DNA of 22,128 nt. Origin: a virus. Below, one piece after another: positions 3,380-21,169 of the stretch. Location of the stretch: positions 1 to 22,128 of IMG/VR virus record IMGVR_UViG_3300049479_000274. One strand, given 5' to 3'. The number at the start of each line of letters is the position of its first letter. The stretch's first letter is position 1. The translations under genes were made by a program, and so were the position numbers. The notes under the pieces were generated by a model that worked only from the letters and a program-made list of their open reading frames with translations, was not told where the DNA came from and ran no database searches.

Positions 3380-5547
3380 GGGGTCACCGAAGGCGTCACG
3401 ATGCTCGACCACAAGCGAACACGGGACAGCAAGCACGCAGACGCCGCTGCCGTCGAGCCCGTCGTTCCCAAGTAGATGAACGACGACGCAGTGGCAGGCA
3501 AAGTGGCCGATGTGTCCGTGCCGATGCTGGCGCCGTCATAGTAGGCGACGATGTCGTTGGTCGCCATCGTCTGCCGCAGTCGATGCGAGACGCCGTCGGT
3601 GACGTCGCCGCTGCCGGCGATGATGTTCCACTGCTGCGTCGTGACCGTGGCCTCAGCAAGAGCGCGGTCGTTAGTGGCGTCAACACCAAGCCTGGCGTAG
3701 TTGGCGCTGCCCGTGCCGACACTGGCGAACGTCGCCGACGCACCGGTGTCGTGTGATGGGCACAGCACGACAGCGTCGAGCGTCGAGGGAGAGCCGGTGT
3801 AATGGCTCACGCCGTCGAACCGAAAGTCGTCCGCGTTGCGTGCCGTCGCACCCGTCGTCGTCGCGAGATAGCTGGTTGGCGTCGGGAATGCCTCGACACG
3901 CACGCCCCAGAAGCCACAGTCAGCAGCCGCATCAGAGTCGGTGTAGACGAGAACGCCGTCGCTGGGAGCGCAGAGCAGGTCGTGGTTGTGCGCTGCCGCC
4001 GTTCCTGTGTACGTGATCGACACGCGGCACAGGTTGACGTCGGCGACGCCGTCTCCCGTCGTGTCGATTGGCCAACGCTCAGCCGATGCTCGCGAGACGC
4101 CGGCCTGCACCGTGTCGACTGCAGCAGTACAATCCTCGCCGACAACGCACGACGACGACGTGCAGGCCGCGACATCGAACCAAGCGACACCGTTGGCGAT
4201 GGTGGCATTGCGCAGGGCGACGAAGTTCTGCGTGCCAGTCTTTGCCCACGCTGAGAACGTATGCGTCGCCGCAGTGACTGTGATGGCTTGTCGCAGTCCG
4301 TGTTCGGCGTTGCTGTTGTTGCCGTCGATGTTGTCGCCCGTCGTCGTCAGGTCGGCGCCTGCATAGGCGTCGGCCAGCACGTTGTCCCCGACGGTGATTG
4401 CGGCCCAGGTCGTGCCCAGCGTTTGGCTCTGCAGGGCAATATTGCTGACTGCAGGCTCAGACATCAGGCCAACAGAGACAGCCCCTGCAGAGTAGGTGCG
4501 ACGAGAAACACGCGGAGCACCGTTGCCGGTCGTATAAAGGTGCCGCACGTTGCCATCGACGACGTCGACGTTGCCAGTCGTGGCGCGCGTCAAGGTCGTC
4601 GGGCCACGAGTTCCAGCAGCAACCGACGGGTCAATACCCCACGCGACAGCAGCGCGAGCGCGAGCGATGGGCGCCCATTGCGTCGGATTGGTCGCGCCGC
4701 CCGCAAAGCACGCGGCGCACTTCCAGACGCGCAGGCTGATGACCGTCGCGCTGTTTGCGGTGCCTGCTGATGCAGCACCGACAGCCAGCGTCGACGCATT
4801 GGTCAGCGTGCCGGAGCGCGCGCTCGCATCCACACCAGCGCCGGCCGCGCCGTTGACGTACAGCAGCCCGCCGTTGGTCGATGCCTCGCTGCGGTCAACG
4901 AACGCCATCCCGTGGAGGAACGAGGCGACGTGACCAGTCGGCCCCGAAAACGCCGTGGTCGTCGACGCCGTGCGCAGCGAGAATGACAGCGACGACGTGC
5001 CCGACTGGCTGAACCGCCAGCCATCGGTGCCGCCAAGCCCCTTGTCGAGGATGACGCTGTTGGAGGCGCCTTGCTTGCCCACATATTCGACGACGAGGTC
5101 TTCAGTGGTCAGGTCGCCGATGGTCGACGACGCGGCGTCGTGGCGCTTGCCGCCGGTGACGTAGAGTTCGCCGCGCTCCATGCTGTCGGTGGCGTGGAAC
5201 GGCGTGTTGATCAGGCTCGACGGCGACGTGCCCGTGCCGGCCTCGGTCAGGACGACGTTGCCGCTGCCATCGCGACAGGTCCACGACGTGCCCGACACGC
5301 CCTGAGCATCGCACGCCAGAACGAGGGTCATTGATACGGAGTTGACTGTGAGCGTATCGCTCAGGTCGTTGGGCGTCGTTGCACCAGCGACAAGGTCAAA
5401 CGTCGGCGTCGGGCCATTGGACAGCGGCGACCCGTTCGGCGTGTTGCCACCGAGGCTCGCGTCGCCACGCATGCCCGCAAACGGTCGAAGCGCCGTTGCC
5501 AGCACCGGGGCCGACAGCAGCGCCAGCACAACAACGGCACGCTTCAT
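3376..5547 (-). CDS. Large secreted LamG-like/jelly-roll protein, adhesin or receptor-binding candidate
   Basis: The 723 aa protein has an apparent Sec signal peptide (MKRAVVVLALLSAPVLATA), a LamG-like domain (about 115-280, with GGLLYVNGAAGAG and a closing SLRVWK strand), a second jelly-roll resembling carbohydrate-binding domains (about 365-575, NIALQSQTLGTTWA to FPTPTSYLATTTGATARNAD) and a third LamG-like domain (about 585-720, VAYYDGASIG, SRVRLWSS). The PTSY...ATARNADD motif is common in phage tail and receptor-binding proteins. The ATG at 5547 is preferred over GTG 5550 because GGGAG is then spaced 6 bases away. Cysteines are frequent in the middle domain, consistent with folding outside the cytoplasm. 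A signal peptide on such a virion-type protein is odd. Confidence 0.6.
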   Translation of the reverse strand: MKRAVVVLALLSAPVLATALRPFAGMRGDASLGGNTPNGSPLSNGPTPTFDLVAGATTPNDLSDTLTVNSVSMTLVLACDAQGVSGTSWTCRDGSGNVVLTEAGTGTSPSSLINTPFHATDSMERGELYVTGGKRHDAASSTIGDLTTEDLVVEYVGKQGASNSVILDKGLGGTDGWRFSQSGTSSLSFSLRTASTTTAFSGPTGHVASFLHGMAFVDRSEASTNGGLLYVNGAAGAGVDASARSGTLTNASTLAVGAASAGTANSATVISLRVWKCAACFAGGATNPTQWAPIARARAAVAWGIDPSVAAGTRGPTTLTRATTGNVDVVDGNVRHLYTTGNGAPRVSRRTYSAGAVSVGLMSEPAVSNIALQSQTLGTTWAAITVGDNVLADAYAGADLTTTGDNIDGNNSNAEHGLRQAITVTAATHTFSAWAKTGTQNFVALRNATIANGVAWFDVAACTSSSCVVGEDCTAAVDTVQAGVSRASAERWPIDTTGDGVADVNLCRVSITYTGTAAAHNHDLLCAPSDGVLVYTDSDAAADCGFWGVRVEAFPTPTSYLATTTGATARNADDFRFDGVSHYTGSPSTLDAVVLCPSHDTGASATFASVGTGSANYARLGVDATNDRALAEATVTTQQWNIIAGSGDVTDGVSHRLRQTMATNDIVAYYDGASIGTDTSATLPATASSFIYLGTTGSTAAASACLLSRVRLWSSIVTPSVTP

Positions 5548-10300: not shown

Positions 10301-10329
10301 TGACACCCTGTCATCGTGACACCCTGTCA
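10301..10329. promoter_or_regulatory. Two tandem operator-like inverted repeats
   Basis: TGACACCCTGTCA is a perfect 5-3-5 inverted repeat present at 10301-10313 and 10317-10329; the identity continues two more bases in each copy (TC), so 15 bases repeat with a 16-base period. A TTGACA hexamer at 10300-10305 overlaps the first copy, but I see no convincing -10 at 16-18 bases. Duplicated short dyads between divergent operons are typical dimeric-repressor sites. The XRE proteins at 16532 and 21166 are possible binders. Confidence 0.6.
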
Positions 10330-10374
10330 TCCCGGAGCCTTGCGCCGCATTGGGAAGCCCCGCAGACTGCCCCG

Positions 10375-11214
10375 ATGACCATCCGCCGCTTCCTGTGCCT
10401 GCCTGTCGACGTCCACGAAGATCCACGCACGATCGACCTATGCGCGGCATTGGGAGATCACGCCGATGCCTACCTAGTGCGGCTGTGGACGTGGGCTGTG
10501 CGGCAGTCACCCGATGGCGTCGTGGGGGCCTACAGCGACGCAGTCCTGGCTACCGCCGCGCGCTGGTCTGGCGATCCTGCTGTCTTCGTCGGGGCTCTTC
10601 GCGCTTGTGGCTGGCTTGATGGGCCCGTGCTCGCTGATTGGTCCGACCTATACCGCGTTGAAAGCGCCAAGCAGTCGCAACGAGACCGAGTAGCCAAACA
10701 CCGCGCTGCAAAGCGGAATTCCCTCTGTAACGTTACAGAAACGGAATTCTCTCTCTCTTCTCTAATTAAGAATTCAGATCTTTCTAAAGAGATCTCTCTT
10801 GGGGGAGAGTCTGAGAGGGGGAGACCGATCCCCACGCTTTCGGATCCATGGTGGTCGACCGATGCCGGCACACTGCGGGCCTATCTGCTCGCGATACCGG
10901 GCCCCGAGCCCCTGCTAGCTCTGCCCGATCCCGAAGATCCCACGCGTAGCGTCCTAGAATCGATGCAGACGCGTTTCCCGGCATGGGATGGCCTGGATGG
11001 TCGCCCGACCCTGCAGGAACGCGCACAATCGACTTGGGACGCTTTACGGGCCCGCGCCAGCAAGTACACATCCGACCCTATGCGGGCGATCGTCTCATGG
11101 CGCGGATGGGTCGGAGACCGCCACGATCAAGCCGCCCAAAGACTGCGCCGGGTCTCCGGAGATCACGATCCGGCGCTACTTCTCTCGAGCCTCGCCCCCC
11201 GCCGGGATAACTGA
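10375..11214 (+). CDS. Replisome organiser / replication initiator-like protein
   Basis: The 279 aa protein has an N-terminal winged-helix-like domain (residues 1-95) with the pattern seen in phage DnaD-like and lambda-O-like initiators: early helices (DPRTIDLCAALGDHADAYLV), an aromatic LWTWAVR helix, a DG turn, then W-rich closing (GWLDGPVLADWSDL). A basic linker (QSQRDRVAKHRAAKRN) leads to a Ser/Asn-rich segment coded by the unusual AT-rich DNA at 10715-10797, and then a C-terminal helical domain (about 155-275). It is the first early gene, with the DnaB-type helicase downstream. The ATG at 10375 has only a weak Shine-Dalgarno but matches the domain start. Confidence 0.6.
   Translation: MTIRRFLCLPVDVHEDPRTIDLCAALGDHADAYLVRLWTWAVRQSPDGVVGAYSDAVLATAARWSGDPAVFVGALRACGWLDGPVLADWSDLYRVESAKQSQRDRVAKHRAAKRNSLCNVTETEFSLSSLIKNSDLSKEISLGGESERGRPIPTLSDPWWSTDAGTLRAYLLAIPGPEPLLALPDPEDPTRSVLESMQTRFPAWDGLDGRPTLQERAQSTWDALRARASKYTSDPMRAIVSWRGWVGDRHDQAAQRLRRVSGDHDPALLLSSLAPRRDN
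10715..10797. other. Candidate replication origin inside the initiator gene
   Basis: Within 83 bases I see a perfect 16-bp palindrome TCTGTAACGTTACAGA (10724-10739), three GAATTC sites (10716, 10744, 10770), an AGATCT (10776-10781) and a 10-bp palindrome AGAGATCTCT (10788-10797). Between them is a pyrimidine tract (10749-10763) and TAATTAA, and just after is a purine tract (10801-10822). The region is far richer in A+T than its surroundings. Repeats followed by an AT-rich, strand-asymmetric stretch inside the initiator gene is the layout of the lambda ori in gene O. No copy-number or replication data are available here. Confidence 0.5.
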
Positions 11215-11273
11215 CAGATCACCCAATTAAACCGCAGATCACGCGCTAACGGCCTGAATCTCTGCCGATCCGA

Positions 11274-13516: not shown

Positions 13517-14821
13517 ATGGATCACCATACGCACGCTGAGCGGCTTGTGCTCGGCGCGTGCCTGGTCGGCGGCCGTTCTGCGGTCGACGCCTTGCACGAC
13601 GTCGACTTGCGCCGCCACGACTTCGCACGCGAGAGCCACGCCCACGTTTGGGGGGCCATCTCGACGTTGCACGCGAGGGGCTCAGAAATTTCTGCGGTCT
13701 CCGTCGCCGATGCGCTGGAGAGTGAGAAAAATTTGGCCAGCATCGGGGGCGCGGCTGAGCTTGCTGCGCTCCAGGCGGTGGCCGTCGGCGGCGTTCACGG
13801 CGTCAAGGAGGCGGCGCGCATCGTCGCCGAGTCTGCTGCGCTGCGTCGCATCGCCGAAGCGGCCACGCTCATCGCCCGGTCTGCCATCGAGCGCGACGCC
13901 GACGCGGCAACGCTGGTGCAGAGGGCGCAGGAAATTTTCTACCGGCTGAACCGTCGAGCCGCCAGGACCACCTACGCAGATAGGCCGGCGGTGGTTGACC
14001 GGCTCATCGCGGAAGCCGCGACACCCGACAAGCGCACCGGACTTCGCACCGGTTGGGCAGCGCTCGACGATGGCCTGCTGTCGCGCGGTATCGGTCCAGG
14101 GCAGTTGGTCATCGTCGCGGCGCGTCCGTCTATGGGCAAGAGCGCGTTCGCTCAGCAGCTTGCGTCCTACGTCGCAGACAAGGCTGCAGCGGCGGCGCTG
14201 TTTTCGCTTGAGATGAGCGCCGAAGAACTCGTCGGGCGGGAACTCGTCCAGGCAAGCAAGATAGGGCAGCGCGATTGGCACGGCCGCATGCACGGGGCAG
14301 CGATGAACAACGCGCGAGCCATCGTCGCCGATCGCCCCCTGTACCTCTACGACTGTCCAGGGGCCACGCTGTCCTACGTTGCCAGCAGTCTGCGGCGGGC
14401 AGTGCAGCACCAGGGCGTCGGGTTGGCGGTGATCGACTACCTGCAACTGATGCGCAGCGAGTCGACGAAGGACCAGAACAAGGCAGACGCCGTCGGCGAG
14501 ATCACGGGGGGTCTGAAAATTTTGGCCCGTGAACTGAAGATCCCCATCGTGTTGCTGTCTCAGCTAAACCGCGCAGTCGAACAGCGCCCCGACAAGCGCC
14601 CGATGATGTCGGACCTGCGCGACAGCGGGACCATCGAGCAGGACGCCGACGCGGTTCTGATGCTTTACCGCCCAGCCTACTACCTCGGCGACAAGTGCCC
14701 TCCGGAGCAGCAGGACGTCTGCGAAATTTTGGTTGCCAAGAATCGCGGCGGGCCCACCGGGAAGGTCGCCCTTGCCTTCGACGGCGCGACGATGCGCTTT
14801 ACTGACCAGGAGGTGTTCTGA
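13517..14821 (+). CDS. dnaB: Replicative DNA helicase, DnaB type
   Basis: The 434 aa protein has the DnaB N-terminal helical domain (about 1-110, starting HTHAERLVLGACL) and the RecA-like helicase domain. Walker A is ARPSMGKSA (202-210), Walker B LAVIDYLQLM with Asp307, then LLSQLNRAVEQR, DLRDSGTIEQDAD and KNRGGPTG near the C-terminus, all in family order. It unwinds DNA 5' to 3' at the fork and would be loaded by the initiator at 10375. GGGGAAAG precedes the ATG at 13517. Six AAATTT hexamers fall in or just before the gene, against its GC-rich codon use. Confidence 0.92.
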   Translation: MDHHTHAERLVLGACLVGGRSAVDALHDVDLRRHDFARESHAHVWGAISTLHARGSEISAVSVADALESEKNLASIGGAAELAALQAVAVGGVHGVKEAARIVAESAALRRIAEAATLIARSAIERDADAATLVQRAQEIFYRLNRRAARTTYADRPAVVDRLIAEAATPDKRTGLRTGWAALDDGLLSRGIGPGQLVIVAARPSMGKSAFAQQLASYVADKAAAAALFSLEMSAEELVGRELVQASKIGQRDWHGRMHGAAMNNARAIVADRPLYLYDCPGATLSYVASSLRRAVQHQGVGLAVIDYLQLMRSESTKDQNKADAVGEITGGLKILARELKIPIVLLSQLNRAVEQRPDKRPMMSDLRDSGTIEQDADAVLMLYRPAYYLGDKCPPEQQDVCEILVAKNRGGPTGKVALAFDGATMRFTDQEVF

Positions 14822-18443: not shown

Positions 18444-18679
18444 CACCCGAAGAACTGCAGGCCCGGTGCGCGTTCCTAGAGCGCGAGTTGGGCGAGGTCG
18501 GCATCCAGTTGGACGCGGCACAGAAGCGACTGCGCCTTGCTGATGAACTAGCAAAAGCGGTCAGAACATGGCGCGAGAACAACGACCGCTATGTGTGGAT
18601 GATCGATAAGGCCATCCATGAGTGGGACAAGGTGCCAGGGGACGAAGGCAGGAAACTGCACGACACGGAGGGACGATGA
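18440..18679 (+). CDS. Small coiled-coil protein, unknown function
   Basis: The 79 aa protein is almost all charged helix with heptad spacing (PEELQARCAFLERELGEVGI, LDAAQKRLRLADELAKAV), then a W/Y segment (RTWRENNDRYVWMIDKAIHEW). It is joined to rusA and the next gene by ATGA overlaps. Coiled coils of this kind are common in phage accessory genes; no specific role can be assigned. Confidence 0.55.
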   Translation: MTPEELQARCAFLERELGEVGIQLDAAQKRLRLADELAKAVRTWRENNDRYVWMIDKAIHEWDKVPGDEGRKLHDTEGR

Positions 18680-18984
18680 CCAAGCACACACCGGGACCGT
18701 GGACTGTTCTGCATTGTCCAATACATCCACCGGAACACGCCGCATGGAATATTTGTGCTCATCTTGCAGATAAAAACGGTGTAAAAATACCCAAAACCGT
18801 TTCCAATATGCAATTGCAATCCGCCGCGCCTGACCTGCTGAAGTCGGCCGATGCTCTCTTGCGCTTTATCGATGAACATCAATTTCATCAGAGCGGTGAC
18901 GACGTAATATTTCCGTGGCCTCCGCTTCGTGACCTGATTGAAAAGATGCGAACAGCAAGCGCAAAAGCAAAAGGGAAGCCATGA
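18676..18984 (+). CDS. TKHTPGPW-family small phage protein, AT-rich copy
   Basis: The 102 aa protein starts MTKHTPGPWTVLHCP and has the AAPDLLKSADALLRFI motif, a layout seen in many uncharacterised phage early genes (TPGPW start, later AAAPELL). Codons from 18704 on are clearly more AT-rich than neighbours (for example a run around 18745-18815), suggesting recent acquisition. The first 28 bases match those of the next gene exactly, a trace of duplication or gene replacement by homologous recombination. ATGA overlap with the upstream gene sets the start. Confidence 0.6.
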   Translation: MTKHTPGPWTVLHCPIHPPEHAAWNICAHLADKNGVKIPKTVSNMQLQSAAPDLLKSADALLRFIDEHQFHQSGDDVIFPWPPLRDLIEKMRTASAKAKGKP

Positions 18985-19008
18985 CCAAGCACACACCGGG
19001 ACCGTGGA
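18676..19008 (+). repeat. 28-base direct repeat at the 5' ends of two adjacent genes
   Basis: Positions 18676-18703 and 18981-19008 are identical over 28 bases, each beginning at an ATG start and covering the codons for MTKHTPGPW. Beyond that the two genes differ in sequence and base composition. Such a repeat can serve as a site of exchange that deletes or replaces the first gene. Confidence 0.8.
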
Positions 19009-19259
19009 AACTTGGCCCGTCTCTTGGTGAGGTGCGCGACGACGACGACAATGTGTTGTGCGACGTGTACCATGACAACGACGAGCAAGCCGAAGCAGAC
19101 GCCTACCTCATCGCCGCCGCGCCCGAGCTGCTGGCGGCATGTGAGCGACTTCTGATGTCCGCTGACGCGTCGTGGCGAGGGCGCGACGTCGGGCACGATT
19201 GGGACGTCGCCTGTGATGAAGCCGTCAAGGCCATCGCGAAAGCAAGGGGGCAGGGATGA
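18981..19259 (+). CDS. TKHTPGPW-family small phage protein, GC-rich copy
   Basis: The 92 aa protein shares the MTKHTPGPW start with its upstream neighbour and has AYLIAAAPELLAACERLL (about 41-60), an acidic N-terminal part and a WD-rich end. The motif pair is familiar from phage accessory genes without assigned function. Base composition is that of the rest of the arm, so this is probably the resident copy. Both ends are ATGA overlaps. Confidence 0.6.
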   Translation: MTKHTPGPWKLGPSLGEVRDDDDNVLCDVYHDNDEQAEADAYLIAAAPELLAACERLLMSADASWRGRDVGHDWDVACDEAVKAIAKARGQG

Positions 19260-20300: not shown

Positions 20301-20450
20301 ATGCCGGCGTTCGTGAAGACCAAGTGGCAGGAGAAGCGATGGGCCAAGGCGAAGAAGGCTGCGGCCAAGAGCATCGACAAGCCTGAGAGCGAGTGGTCCG
20401 ACAAGGAGTGGGCCACCGTGACCACCATCTACAAGAACATGAAGCAGTAG
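20301..20450 (+). CDS. Small basic phage protein (MPAFVKT type)
   Basis: A 49-codon ORF with a GGAGG site 6 bases upstream encodes MPAFVKTKWQEKRWAKAKKA and ends WATVTTIYKNMKQ. I recognise this pattern (P-A-F-V-K, W-x-x-A-K, W-A-x-V-x-x-I-Y) from small uncharacterised phage proteins that recur near structural or replication genes. It is lysine-rich with a helix-turn-helix-like size, but no function is known to me. Confidence 0.65.
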   Translation: MPAFVKTKWQEKRWAKAKKAAAKSIDKPESEWSDKEWATVTTIYKNMKQ

Positions 20451-20467
20451 GACGAAAGGACACGGGG

Positions 20468-21169
20468 ATGGGAGCACATCTACACCTGGGACGCTGGCAA
20501 GACGCGCTGGCGGGCATCGACGCCGTCAACGCCATCATCACCGACCCACCCTACGGGGTGCGCACGCATGAGGGATGGAACGCTGGGGAGAAGCAGGTCC
20601 GCGACGCTACGGGGCAGTCGACGAGGACGGCCATCGGCTACGACGCGATGTCGCCCAGCGAGGTCTTCAAGTTCGTCGACCACTGGGCCCCTCGATGCAG
20701 TGGCTGGATGGCGGTGATGACGTCGCACGACCTCATCGGCTGCTGGGAGCAGGCGTTCAGGGATGCGAAGCGCCTCGCCTTCGCCCCGGTGCCCATCATC
20801 CAGAAGCGCCCCAGACTCATTGGGGACGGTCCTGCGTCGTGGGCCGTCTACTTGATGGTCTCGCGGCCCAGAACGCGCCAGATGGCATCCTGGGGTTGCC
20901 TGCCGGGTGCCTACGAAGCGCCGACCGAGAAGGGGCTGGGCATCGCAGGGGCCAAGCCGGTGGGACTCATGCAGGCCATCGTGCGGGACTACAGCAGGCC
21001 CGGCGACCTTGTGTGCGACCCGTTCACCGGTGGCGGCTCGACGGCGCTGGCGGCTCTCGGCGAGCATCGGCGCTTCGTCGGGGCTGAGATGGACCGCGAG
21101 CACTACGACATCGCGATGGGCCGGCTAGCGCAGGGTCACACGCCCGACCTCTTTGGAGGTGCGCCGTGA
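20468..21169 (+). CDS. Orphan DNA methyltransferase, beta class (N6-A or N4-C)
   Basis: The 233 aa enzyme has the catalytic motif TDPPYG near the N-terminus (residues 25-30), a middle part that would hold target recognition, and the AdoMet-binding motif near the C-terminus (CDPFTGGGSTALAAL), followed by GAEMD. DPPY before FxGxG is the beta-class order. No restriction endonuclease lies nearby, so it likely protects phage DNA from host restriction or marks it for regulation. The target site cannot be read from sequence. ATG 20468 is preceded by AAGGA. Confidence 0.85.
   Translation: MGAHLHLGRWQDALAGIDAVNAIITDPPYGVRTHEGWNAGEKQVRDATGQSTRTAIGYDAMSPSEVFKFVDHWAPRCSGWMAVMTSHDLIGCWEQAFRDAKRLAFAPVPIIQKRPRLIGDGPASWAVYLMVSRPRTRQMASWGCLPGAYEAPTEKGLGIAGAKPVGLMQAIVRDYSRPGDLVCDPFTGGGSTALAALGEHRRFVGAEMDREHYDIAMGRLAQGHTPDLFGGAP

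What the first reader, a model, noticed from the sequence alone, without database searches (positions are those of the whole stretch)
10711..10830. Candidate phage replication origin inside the initiator gene
A 16-bp perfect palindrome, a 10-bp palindrome, three GAATTC sites and a sudden AT-rich stretch with a pyrimidine tract followed by a purine tract fall in about 100 bases of otherwise GC-rich coding sequence, in the linker between the initiator's two domains. The lambda origin has the same general plan (repeats then AT-rich, purine/pyrimidine-asymmetric DNA inside gene O). The coding sense is kept but the amino acids are bland Ser/Asn/Leu, as expected where DNA structure outranks protein.
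Basis: partly seen in the sequence, partly recalled or inferred. Interest (0 to 1): 0.75.

Follow-up and report, generated by a model that had tools for sequence, protein, structure and literature searches.

The report
Phage origin with mirror-repeat DNA element
The odd stretch in this phage's replication-starter gene is very probably where its DNA copying begins, and it holds a mirror-image DNA repeat that turns up, with its symmetry kept, in the starter genes of many unrelated phages, which suggests an unusual three-stranded DNA fold helps open their DNA.

Summary
The 120 bp hold the AT-richest 60-mer of the window, its only three GAATTC sites, a 16-bp palindrome (not significant alone), and the only Py/Pu tract pair in the window. 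Two relatives support a cis-acting origin. L002 (initiator 56% identical) keeps the AT-rich/Py/Pu segment in an otherwise unconserved linker, with 8 codons free of synonymous change. G001 lacks the initiator gene but keeps Py and Pu tracts in non-coding DNA at the same locus. GATC is the most enriched tetramer at the locus in all three.

G001 has a different sequence with the symmetry kept (12-nt arms). A DNA-only scan of IMG/VR for the core found 65 distinct contexts. In 58 the arms match; flanking bases covary mirror-wise (223 matches against 146 +/- 10 permuted). About 20 lie in, or are related to, replication-initiator genes of several unrelated families, in four frames and both orientations.

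Mirror symmetry is the requirement for H-DNA. Best reading: a lambda-like origin whose opening is helped by triplex-prone DNA. Nothing was tested experimentally. Eighteen initiators not chosen by motif, lambda O included, lack it.

The parts
10375..11214 (+). replication initiator gene, 279 aa: N-terminal domain (aa 1-96), linker (97-150), C-terminal domain (151-279)
   Evidence: ORF; PHROG 9474, 2509 and 3926 'replication initiation protein' on the N-terminal part
10301..10331 (.). two tandem palindromic units TGACACCCTGTCATCG upstream of the gene, probably operator or initiator sites
   Evidence: tandem repeat; L002 has AACACCCTGTCATCCCAACACACTGTCATTC at the same place
10332..10368 (+). 37-nt leader identical in L002, function unknown
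   Evidence: alignment A1
10711..10754 (+). two 16-nt direct repeats AAGCGGAATTCCCTCT / AAACGGAATTCTCTCT (iteron-like), 28 nt apart
   Evidence: GCGGAATTCT x3 lies beside the mirror repeat in unrelated phage L109
10724..10739 (.). 16-bp palindrome TCTGTAACGTTACAGA; L002 has repeated GTCCCCGGGACA at the same place
10728..10787 (.). AT-richest 60 bp of the window (68% AT), candidate unwinding region
   Evidence: the AT maximum of the L002 contig is at the same place
10747..10763 (+). pyrimidine tract TTCTCTCTCTCTTCTCT
10798..10821 (+). eight codons (LGGESERG) identical in L002 with no synonymous change
10801..10821 (+). mirror repeat GGGGGAGAG-TCT-GAGAGGGGG, 9-nt arms with a 3-nt hinge; candidate H-DNA (triplex) element
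   Evidence: mirror covariation in 65 contexts
10420..11270 (.). cluster of 17 GATC sites (3.0 expected), the most enriched tetramer at the locus in three genomes
13517..14821 (+). DnaB-type replicative helicase of the same module
   Evidence: PF03796, PF00772

Best explanation
The linker of the initiator gene is the phage's replication origin. Inferred steps: the N-terminal domain of the 279-aa initiator binds the palindromic, iteron-like repeats at 10711-10754, and the complex strains the adjacent 60-bp AT-rich region. The purine mirror repeat at 10801-10821 can fold back under negative supercoiling into a short purine-motif triplex (H-DNA, 9-nt arms, TCT hinge), which would absorb supercoiling and leave part of the C-rich strand single-stranded. 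The initiator's C-terminal domain then delivers the phage DnaB helicase to the open DNA. Shown here: DNA-level conservation of the element, its survival without the gene, the mirror covariation and the enrichment in initiator genes. Inferred: origin activity, protein binding, triplex formation and helicase loading.
For: (1) Against L002, the linker aa 97-125 is 10% identical, while aa 142-149 keep 8/8 codons; elsewhere about half of the codons for conserved residues are identical. (2) G001 (TerL 80% identical) has no recognisable initiator but keeps Py tract, palindromes and Pu tract in ~600 bp of non-coding DNA at the same locus. (3) The four purine mirror repeats with arms >=8 in the three genomes (73 kb) all lie at this locus; background is 8 per 750 kb. 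(4) G001 has GGGGAGAGGGAG-TCC-GAGGGAGAGGGG: different arm sequence, same symmetry. (5) Pattern scan: 65 dereplicated contexts, inner R-R pair GG 41, AA 17, GA 7, AG 0; flank mirror matches 223 vs 146 +/- 10 by permutation; only the zero offset is raised, 0.45 against 0.27-0.36; G/G and A/A in excess, A/G depleted. (6) About 20 contexts lie in, or in relatives of, initiator-family genes; among these 74 mirror matches vs 39.9 +/- 4.9. (7) GATC clusters at the locus in all three genomes. (8) Each lambdoid iteron is an inverted repeat and oriLambda is iterons plus AT-rich tract inside gene O (PMC7466680). (9) A purine-motif triplex with 9-nt stems and a 3-nt second loop folds stably in vitro (PMC4666352).
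Against: Fewer iteron copies than lambda. 18 initiators not chosen by motif, lambda O included, lack the mirror repeat, so it is not required for phage origins in general. The nearest pyrimidine arm is ~38 nt away, so the 2015 single-strand triplex motif is not met. Arms of 9 nt are short for H-DNA in a duplex; in PMC4666352 in vivo footprinting did not show protection. Many of the 65 contexts could not be tied to a replication gene. No skew turning point is clear in the window.
Confidence: 0.6

Rival explanations
1. An ordinary lambda-type origin in which Py/Pu-asymmetric, AT-rich DNA is simply easy to melt; the mirror symmetry has no structural role and the purine tract is a sequence-specific site for a helicase, primase or host protein.
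For: Same general plan as lambda (PMC7466680). The TCT centre is strongly preferred: all 20 initiator-related contexts have TCT although TCC was allowed.
Against: A directional protein site does not predict that left and right flanks covary base for base in mirror register, nor that G001 changes both arms and keeps symmetry.
Confidence: 0.2
2. RNA-level element: the Py and Pu tracts form a hairpin in the initiator mRNA that tunes its expression or is a transcription signal.
For: RNA fold of 10700-10840 z = -3.7; L002 folds similarly (z = -2.4).
Against: In G001 there is no gene to regulate at this place. Motif orientation to the gene differs among phages (L105, L109 antisense). An RNA hairpin needs complementarity, but the flanks show mirror identity, and complementary matches are below chance (0.20). 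No Rfam match.
Confidence: 0.07
3. A recombination hinge: triplex-prone DNA between the two initiator domains promotes module exchange rather than replication.
For: N-terminal and linker parts of the initiator differ much more than the C-terminal part between window and L002. Triplex motifs in bacteria are linked with rearrangement (PMC4666352).
Against: Does not explain the co-located AT maximum, iteron-like repeats and GATC clusters, or retention in non-coding DNA in G001.
Confidence: 0.08

Closest known systems
Phage lambda origin (oriLambda) inside gene O
   Same: Lies in the linker region of the initiator gene, has palindromic repeats next to an AT-rich segment, and sits in a module with a replicative helicase function.
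   Different: Lambda has four annotated iterons and no purine mirror repeat. Here there are two degenerate repeats plus palindromes, a mirror repeat, a GATC cluster, and the phage encodes DnaB itself.
Intrastrand purine-motif triplex motif TM_ECO (Holder et al. 2015, PMC4666352)
   Same: G-rich purine arms of 9 nt with a 3-nt loop between them.
   Different: TM_ECO has an adjacent C-rich third stem, occurs in many copies in bacterial genomes and has no known function. The phage element has no adjacent C-rich stem, occurs once or twice per genome in the three genomes compared, and often lies in initiator genes.
H-DNA mirror repeats (general class)
   Same: Homopurine mirror repeat with a short central hinge, which is the sequence requirement for H-DNA stated in PMC4666352.
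   Different: No report in the searched library of a mirror repeat conserved in phage origins.

Membership tests
Lambda-type origin within the initiator gene | located between the two domains of the initiator gene | tested here: met
   10711-10821 in the linker of ORF 10375-11214; N and C parts conserved, linker not
Lambda-type origin within the initiator gene | AT-rich segment next to the repeats | tested here: met
   AT maximum of the window at 10728-10787
Lambda-type origin within the initiator gene | array of about four or more iterons, each an inverted repeat | tested here: inconclusive
   two 16-nt repeats at 88% identity with GAATTC cores plus one palindrome; two repeats in L002
Lambda-type origin within the initiator gene | initiator binds the repeats and the DNA replicates in cis | not testable with these tools
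   needs binding and replication assays
Phage replication initiators (PHROG 9474/2509/3926) | sequence match to the family profile | tested here: met
   3.6e-13, 8.7e-6 and 0.0016 for the N-terminal part; aligns with known initiators
H-DNA-forming sequence | homopurine mirror repeat with short hinge | tested here: met
   9-nt arms, TCT hinge; mirror covariation
H-DNA-forming sequence | forms a triplex under supercoiling | not testable with these tools
   needs chemical probing
TM_ECO intrastrand triplex | C-rich 9-nt stem 3-6 nt before the two G-rich stems | tested here: not met
   Py tract ends at 10763, mirror repeat starts at 10801, and the tract is CT-repeat rather than C-rich

The most novel reading that the evidence does not exclude
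A previously unnamed class of phage origin element: a G-rich purine mirror repeat with a TCT hinge, kept symmetric by mirror-compensating changes, gained or retained in the origins of phages with unrelated initiator families, acting through an intramolecular triplex to open the duplex for helicase loading.
Probability: 0.45. Interest if true: 0.9.

Novelty: new variant of a known kind. Interest (0 to 1): 0.78.

Why it matters
A natural role for H-DNA has long been discussed with little evolutionary evidence. Mirror-compensating changes across unrelated phages are the counterpart of RNA covariation and give a direct way to test whether a triplex does a job in vivo. The motif also allows origins to be found in phage genomes with unknown initiators: a DNA-only pattern led straight to initiator genes. 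The original finding turns from one odd 120-bp stretch into a testable, recurrent element.

Tried and rejected
Chance as the explanation of the 16-bp palindrome alone: cannot be excluded (0.9 expected), so no weight was put on it. Protein-level selection for the GGESERG peptide: rejected, because the DNA is kept in four frames and both orientations. G-quadruplex: two G runs only in the window, and it does not predict A-with-A mirror pairing. Host DnaA origin: no cluster of DnaA boxes. Structured RNA family: no Rfam match. AlphaFold2 of the initiator from two sequences was too poor to use (pLDDT 42), so no fold search was made. Scans of genome contigs with the initiator and TerL found no relatives. 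DNA search of isolated phages with the window region found nothing. BLAST of the short motif found Nitratiruptor phages NrS-4/5; the GGGGGAGTCTGAGGGGG form gave hits I take as chance, e.g. mycobacteriophage repressor genes and a fecal contig where it lies at the end of an unrelated gene. 744 kb of DnaB-neighbour loci held only one strict (mixed A/G, at least four G) mirror repeat with arms >=9. GC skew: no clear turning point.

Full report
The observation. The 16-bp palindrome by itself is what chance would give in 22 kb (0.9 expected in dinucleotide shuffles). The combination is not: the AT-richest 60 bp of the window, the only three GAATTC sites and the only nearby Py/Pu pair of >=12-nt tracts coincide in one linker. 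RNA folding of the stretch is stronger than in shuffles (z = -3.7), mainly because CT- and GA-rich tracts pair.

The gene. ORF 10375-11214 encodes 279 aa whose N-terminal part matches PHROG replication initiation proteins and aligns with initiators of E. coli, Paenibacillus and Faecalibacterium phages. It is followed by DnaB, RecT-like, SSB and RusA genes. Small and large terminase genes diverge to the left (the names rest on my reading of the sequences and the gene order, since Pfam gave only an HTH match for the small one and none for the large one).

Relatives. Only two relatives were found in IMG/VR. L002 (contig 15.7 kb) has a 56% identical initiator. Protein identity is 52% in aa 1-96, 10% in aa 97-125 and 81% in aa 201-279, while aa 142-149 keep all eight codons without a synonymous change, against 72 of 140 conserved-residue codons in aa 1-96 and 151-279. 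In both phages the AT maximum is here, and a palindromic repeat precedes the Py tract, but with different sequence (TCTGTAACGTTACAGA and GAATTC repeats against repeated GTCCCCGGGACA). I infer that binding sites and N-terminal domain have diverged together, as in lambdoid phages (established knowledge, not tested).

G001 (35.3 kb) has the same gene order and a TerL 80% identical but no initiator by three searches. In place of the gene lie about 600 bp of non-coding DNA with a Py tract, palindromes and a Pu tract. So the nucleotide element outlives the protein. GATC is the most enriched tetramer at the locus in all three genomes (17 vs 3.0, 18 vs 2.4, 15 vs 2.8 expected), as in origins regulated by adenine methylation. 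All three encode an N6/N4 DNA methyltransferase, but a link is only a lead.

The mirror repeat. The conserved Pu tract is GGGGGAGAG-TCT-GAGAGGGGG at 10801-10821: read outwards from the TCT, both arms are the same. G001 has GGGGAGAGGGAG-TCC-GAGGGAGAGGGG, and on the other strand, within its Py tract, GAGGGGGAG-TAT-GAGGGGGAG. These four are the only purine mirror repeats with arms >=8 in the 73 kb of the three genomes, and all lie at this locus; background is 8 per 750 kb.

Unrelated phages. A scan of IMG/VR with the 16-mer GGGGAGAGTCTGAGAG hit 15 other contigs, several inside unrelated initiator genes and with G runs of equal length on both sides. A second scan with GGGRGAGTCYGAGRGGG gave 95 stretches, 65 distinct contexts after dereplication. 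The two R positions agree in 58 (GG 41, AA 17) and differ in 7 (GA 7, AG 0). Beyond the searched core, left and right flanks match mirror-wise 223 times against 146 +/- 10 in 5000 partner permutations, none reaching it. Shifting the register by one base or more drops the match from 0.45 to 0.27-0.36, and complementary matching is 0.20. At the first three flank positions G/G and A/A are in excess (46 vs 27, 48 vs 30), and A/G and G/A are depleted (13 vs 28, 8 vs 25). The core and its TCY centre are conserved by construction of the search; the R-R pairing, the flanks and the gene context are not.

Gene context. Of 44 open frames that hold the motif, 15 with matching arms match replication initiation, O-like, DnaD-like, replisome organiser or primosomal families (two of them weakly: L165, L194); L156 and L186 match a family of unknown function shared with one of these, and L126 resembles a Porphyromonas phage initiator. 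With the window and L002 this gives 20 contexts. All 20 have TCT, mean arm 10.0 nt, with 74 mirror matches against 39.9 +/- 4.9 by permutation. The encoded peptide is GESERG/GESEGE, SLRG, SQTLP/QTP or SDSP depending on frame and strand, so protein selection cannot explain it. Repeated 8-mers (>=3 copies within 250 nt) occur near 25% of symmetric contexts against 9% of background: for example GCGGAATTCT x3 in L109, with the same GGAATTC core as the window, and GTTACGGTTT in L115. A cultured example is Nitratiruptor phage NrS-4, with AAAGGGGGAGAG-TGT-GAGAGGGGGAAA in a gene annotated hypothetical.

Mechanism. Mirror symmetry has no evident use for a dyad-symmetric protein or for a Watson-Crick hairpin. 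It is the sequence requirement of H-DNA (PMC4666352), where identical bases face each other across the hinge as G-G-C and A-A-T triads. A related motif with 9-nt stems and a 3-nt loop forms a stable triplex in vitro, though not clearly in vivo. I therefore favour an origin in which initiator binding and supercoiling open the AT-rich segment with help from a triplex. Binding, opening and triplex formation are inferred.

Limits. No experiment was possible. 18 initiators not chosen by motif, lambda O included, lack it. Most contexts are metagenomic, and about 30 could not be tied to a replication gene. The literature search covers only the open-licence PMC library; it held no mention of the motif sequence apart from one unrelated match and, among the papers listed, no report of mirror repeats in phage origins.

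Noticed in passing
window 10332-10368: 37-nt leader just upstream of the initiator, 100% identical in L002 while the gene start is about 57% identical; no obvious Shine-Dalgarno before the ATG.
   Followed up: partly
window 10420-11270; L002 4240-5130; G001 26409-26750: Dense GATC clusters around the origin in all three phages, while a conserved N6/N4 DNA methyltransferase gene (window 20393-21169) is present in all three: possible methylation control of initiation.
   Followed up: partly
L006 (G001) 4855-5449: Relative with the same gene order but no initiator gene at the locus and no initiator found elsewhere in 35.3 kb; how it starts replication is unknown.
   Followed up: partly
G001 26368-26388 and 26593-26619: Two purine mirror repeats on opposite strands flank about 200 bp of palindromes, perhaps one per fork.
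   Followed up: partly
L009 1887-2905: G001 carries a QueD-like gene (PHROG 2389) next to a 210-aa gene (PHROG 15826, unknown function) that looks to me like a DpdA-type enzyme: possible 7-deazaguanine DNA modification.
   Followed up: no
window 18500-19250: AT-richer stretch (GC 0.53-0.56) holding two paralogous-looking small genes that both contain MTKHTPGPW near the start.
   Followed up: no
L106, L108, L114, L184: Chance matches to the core lie in one recurrent phage gene with TACAGGGGAGAGTCTGAGAGGGAGAAGATGTGG-like sequence and no flank symmetry; useful as a negative control.
   Followed up: yes
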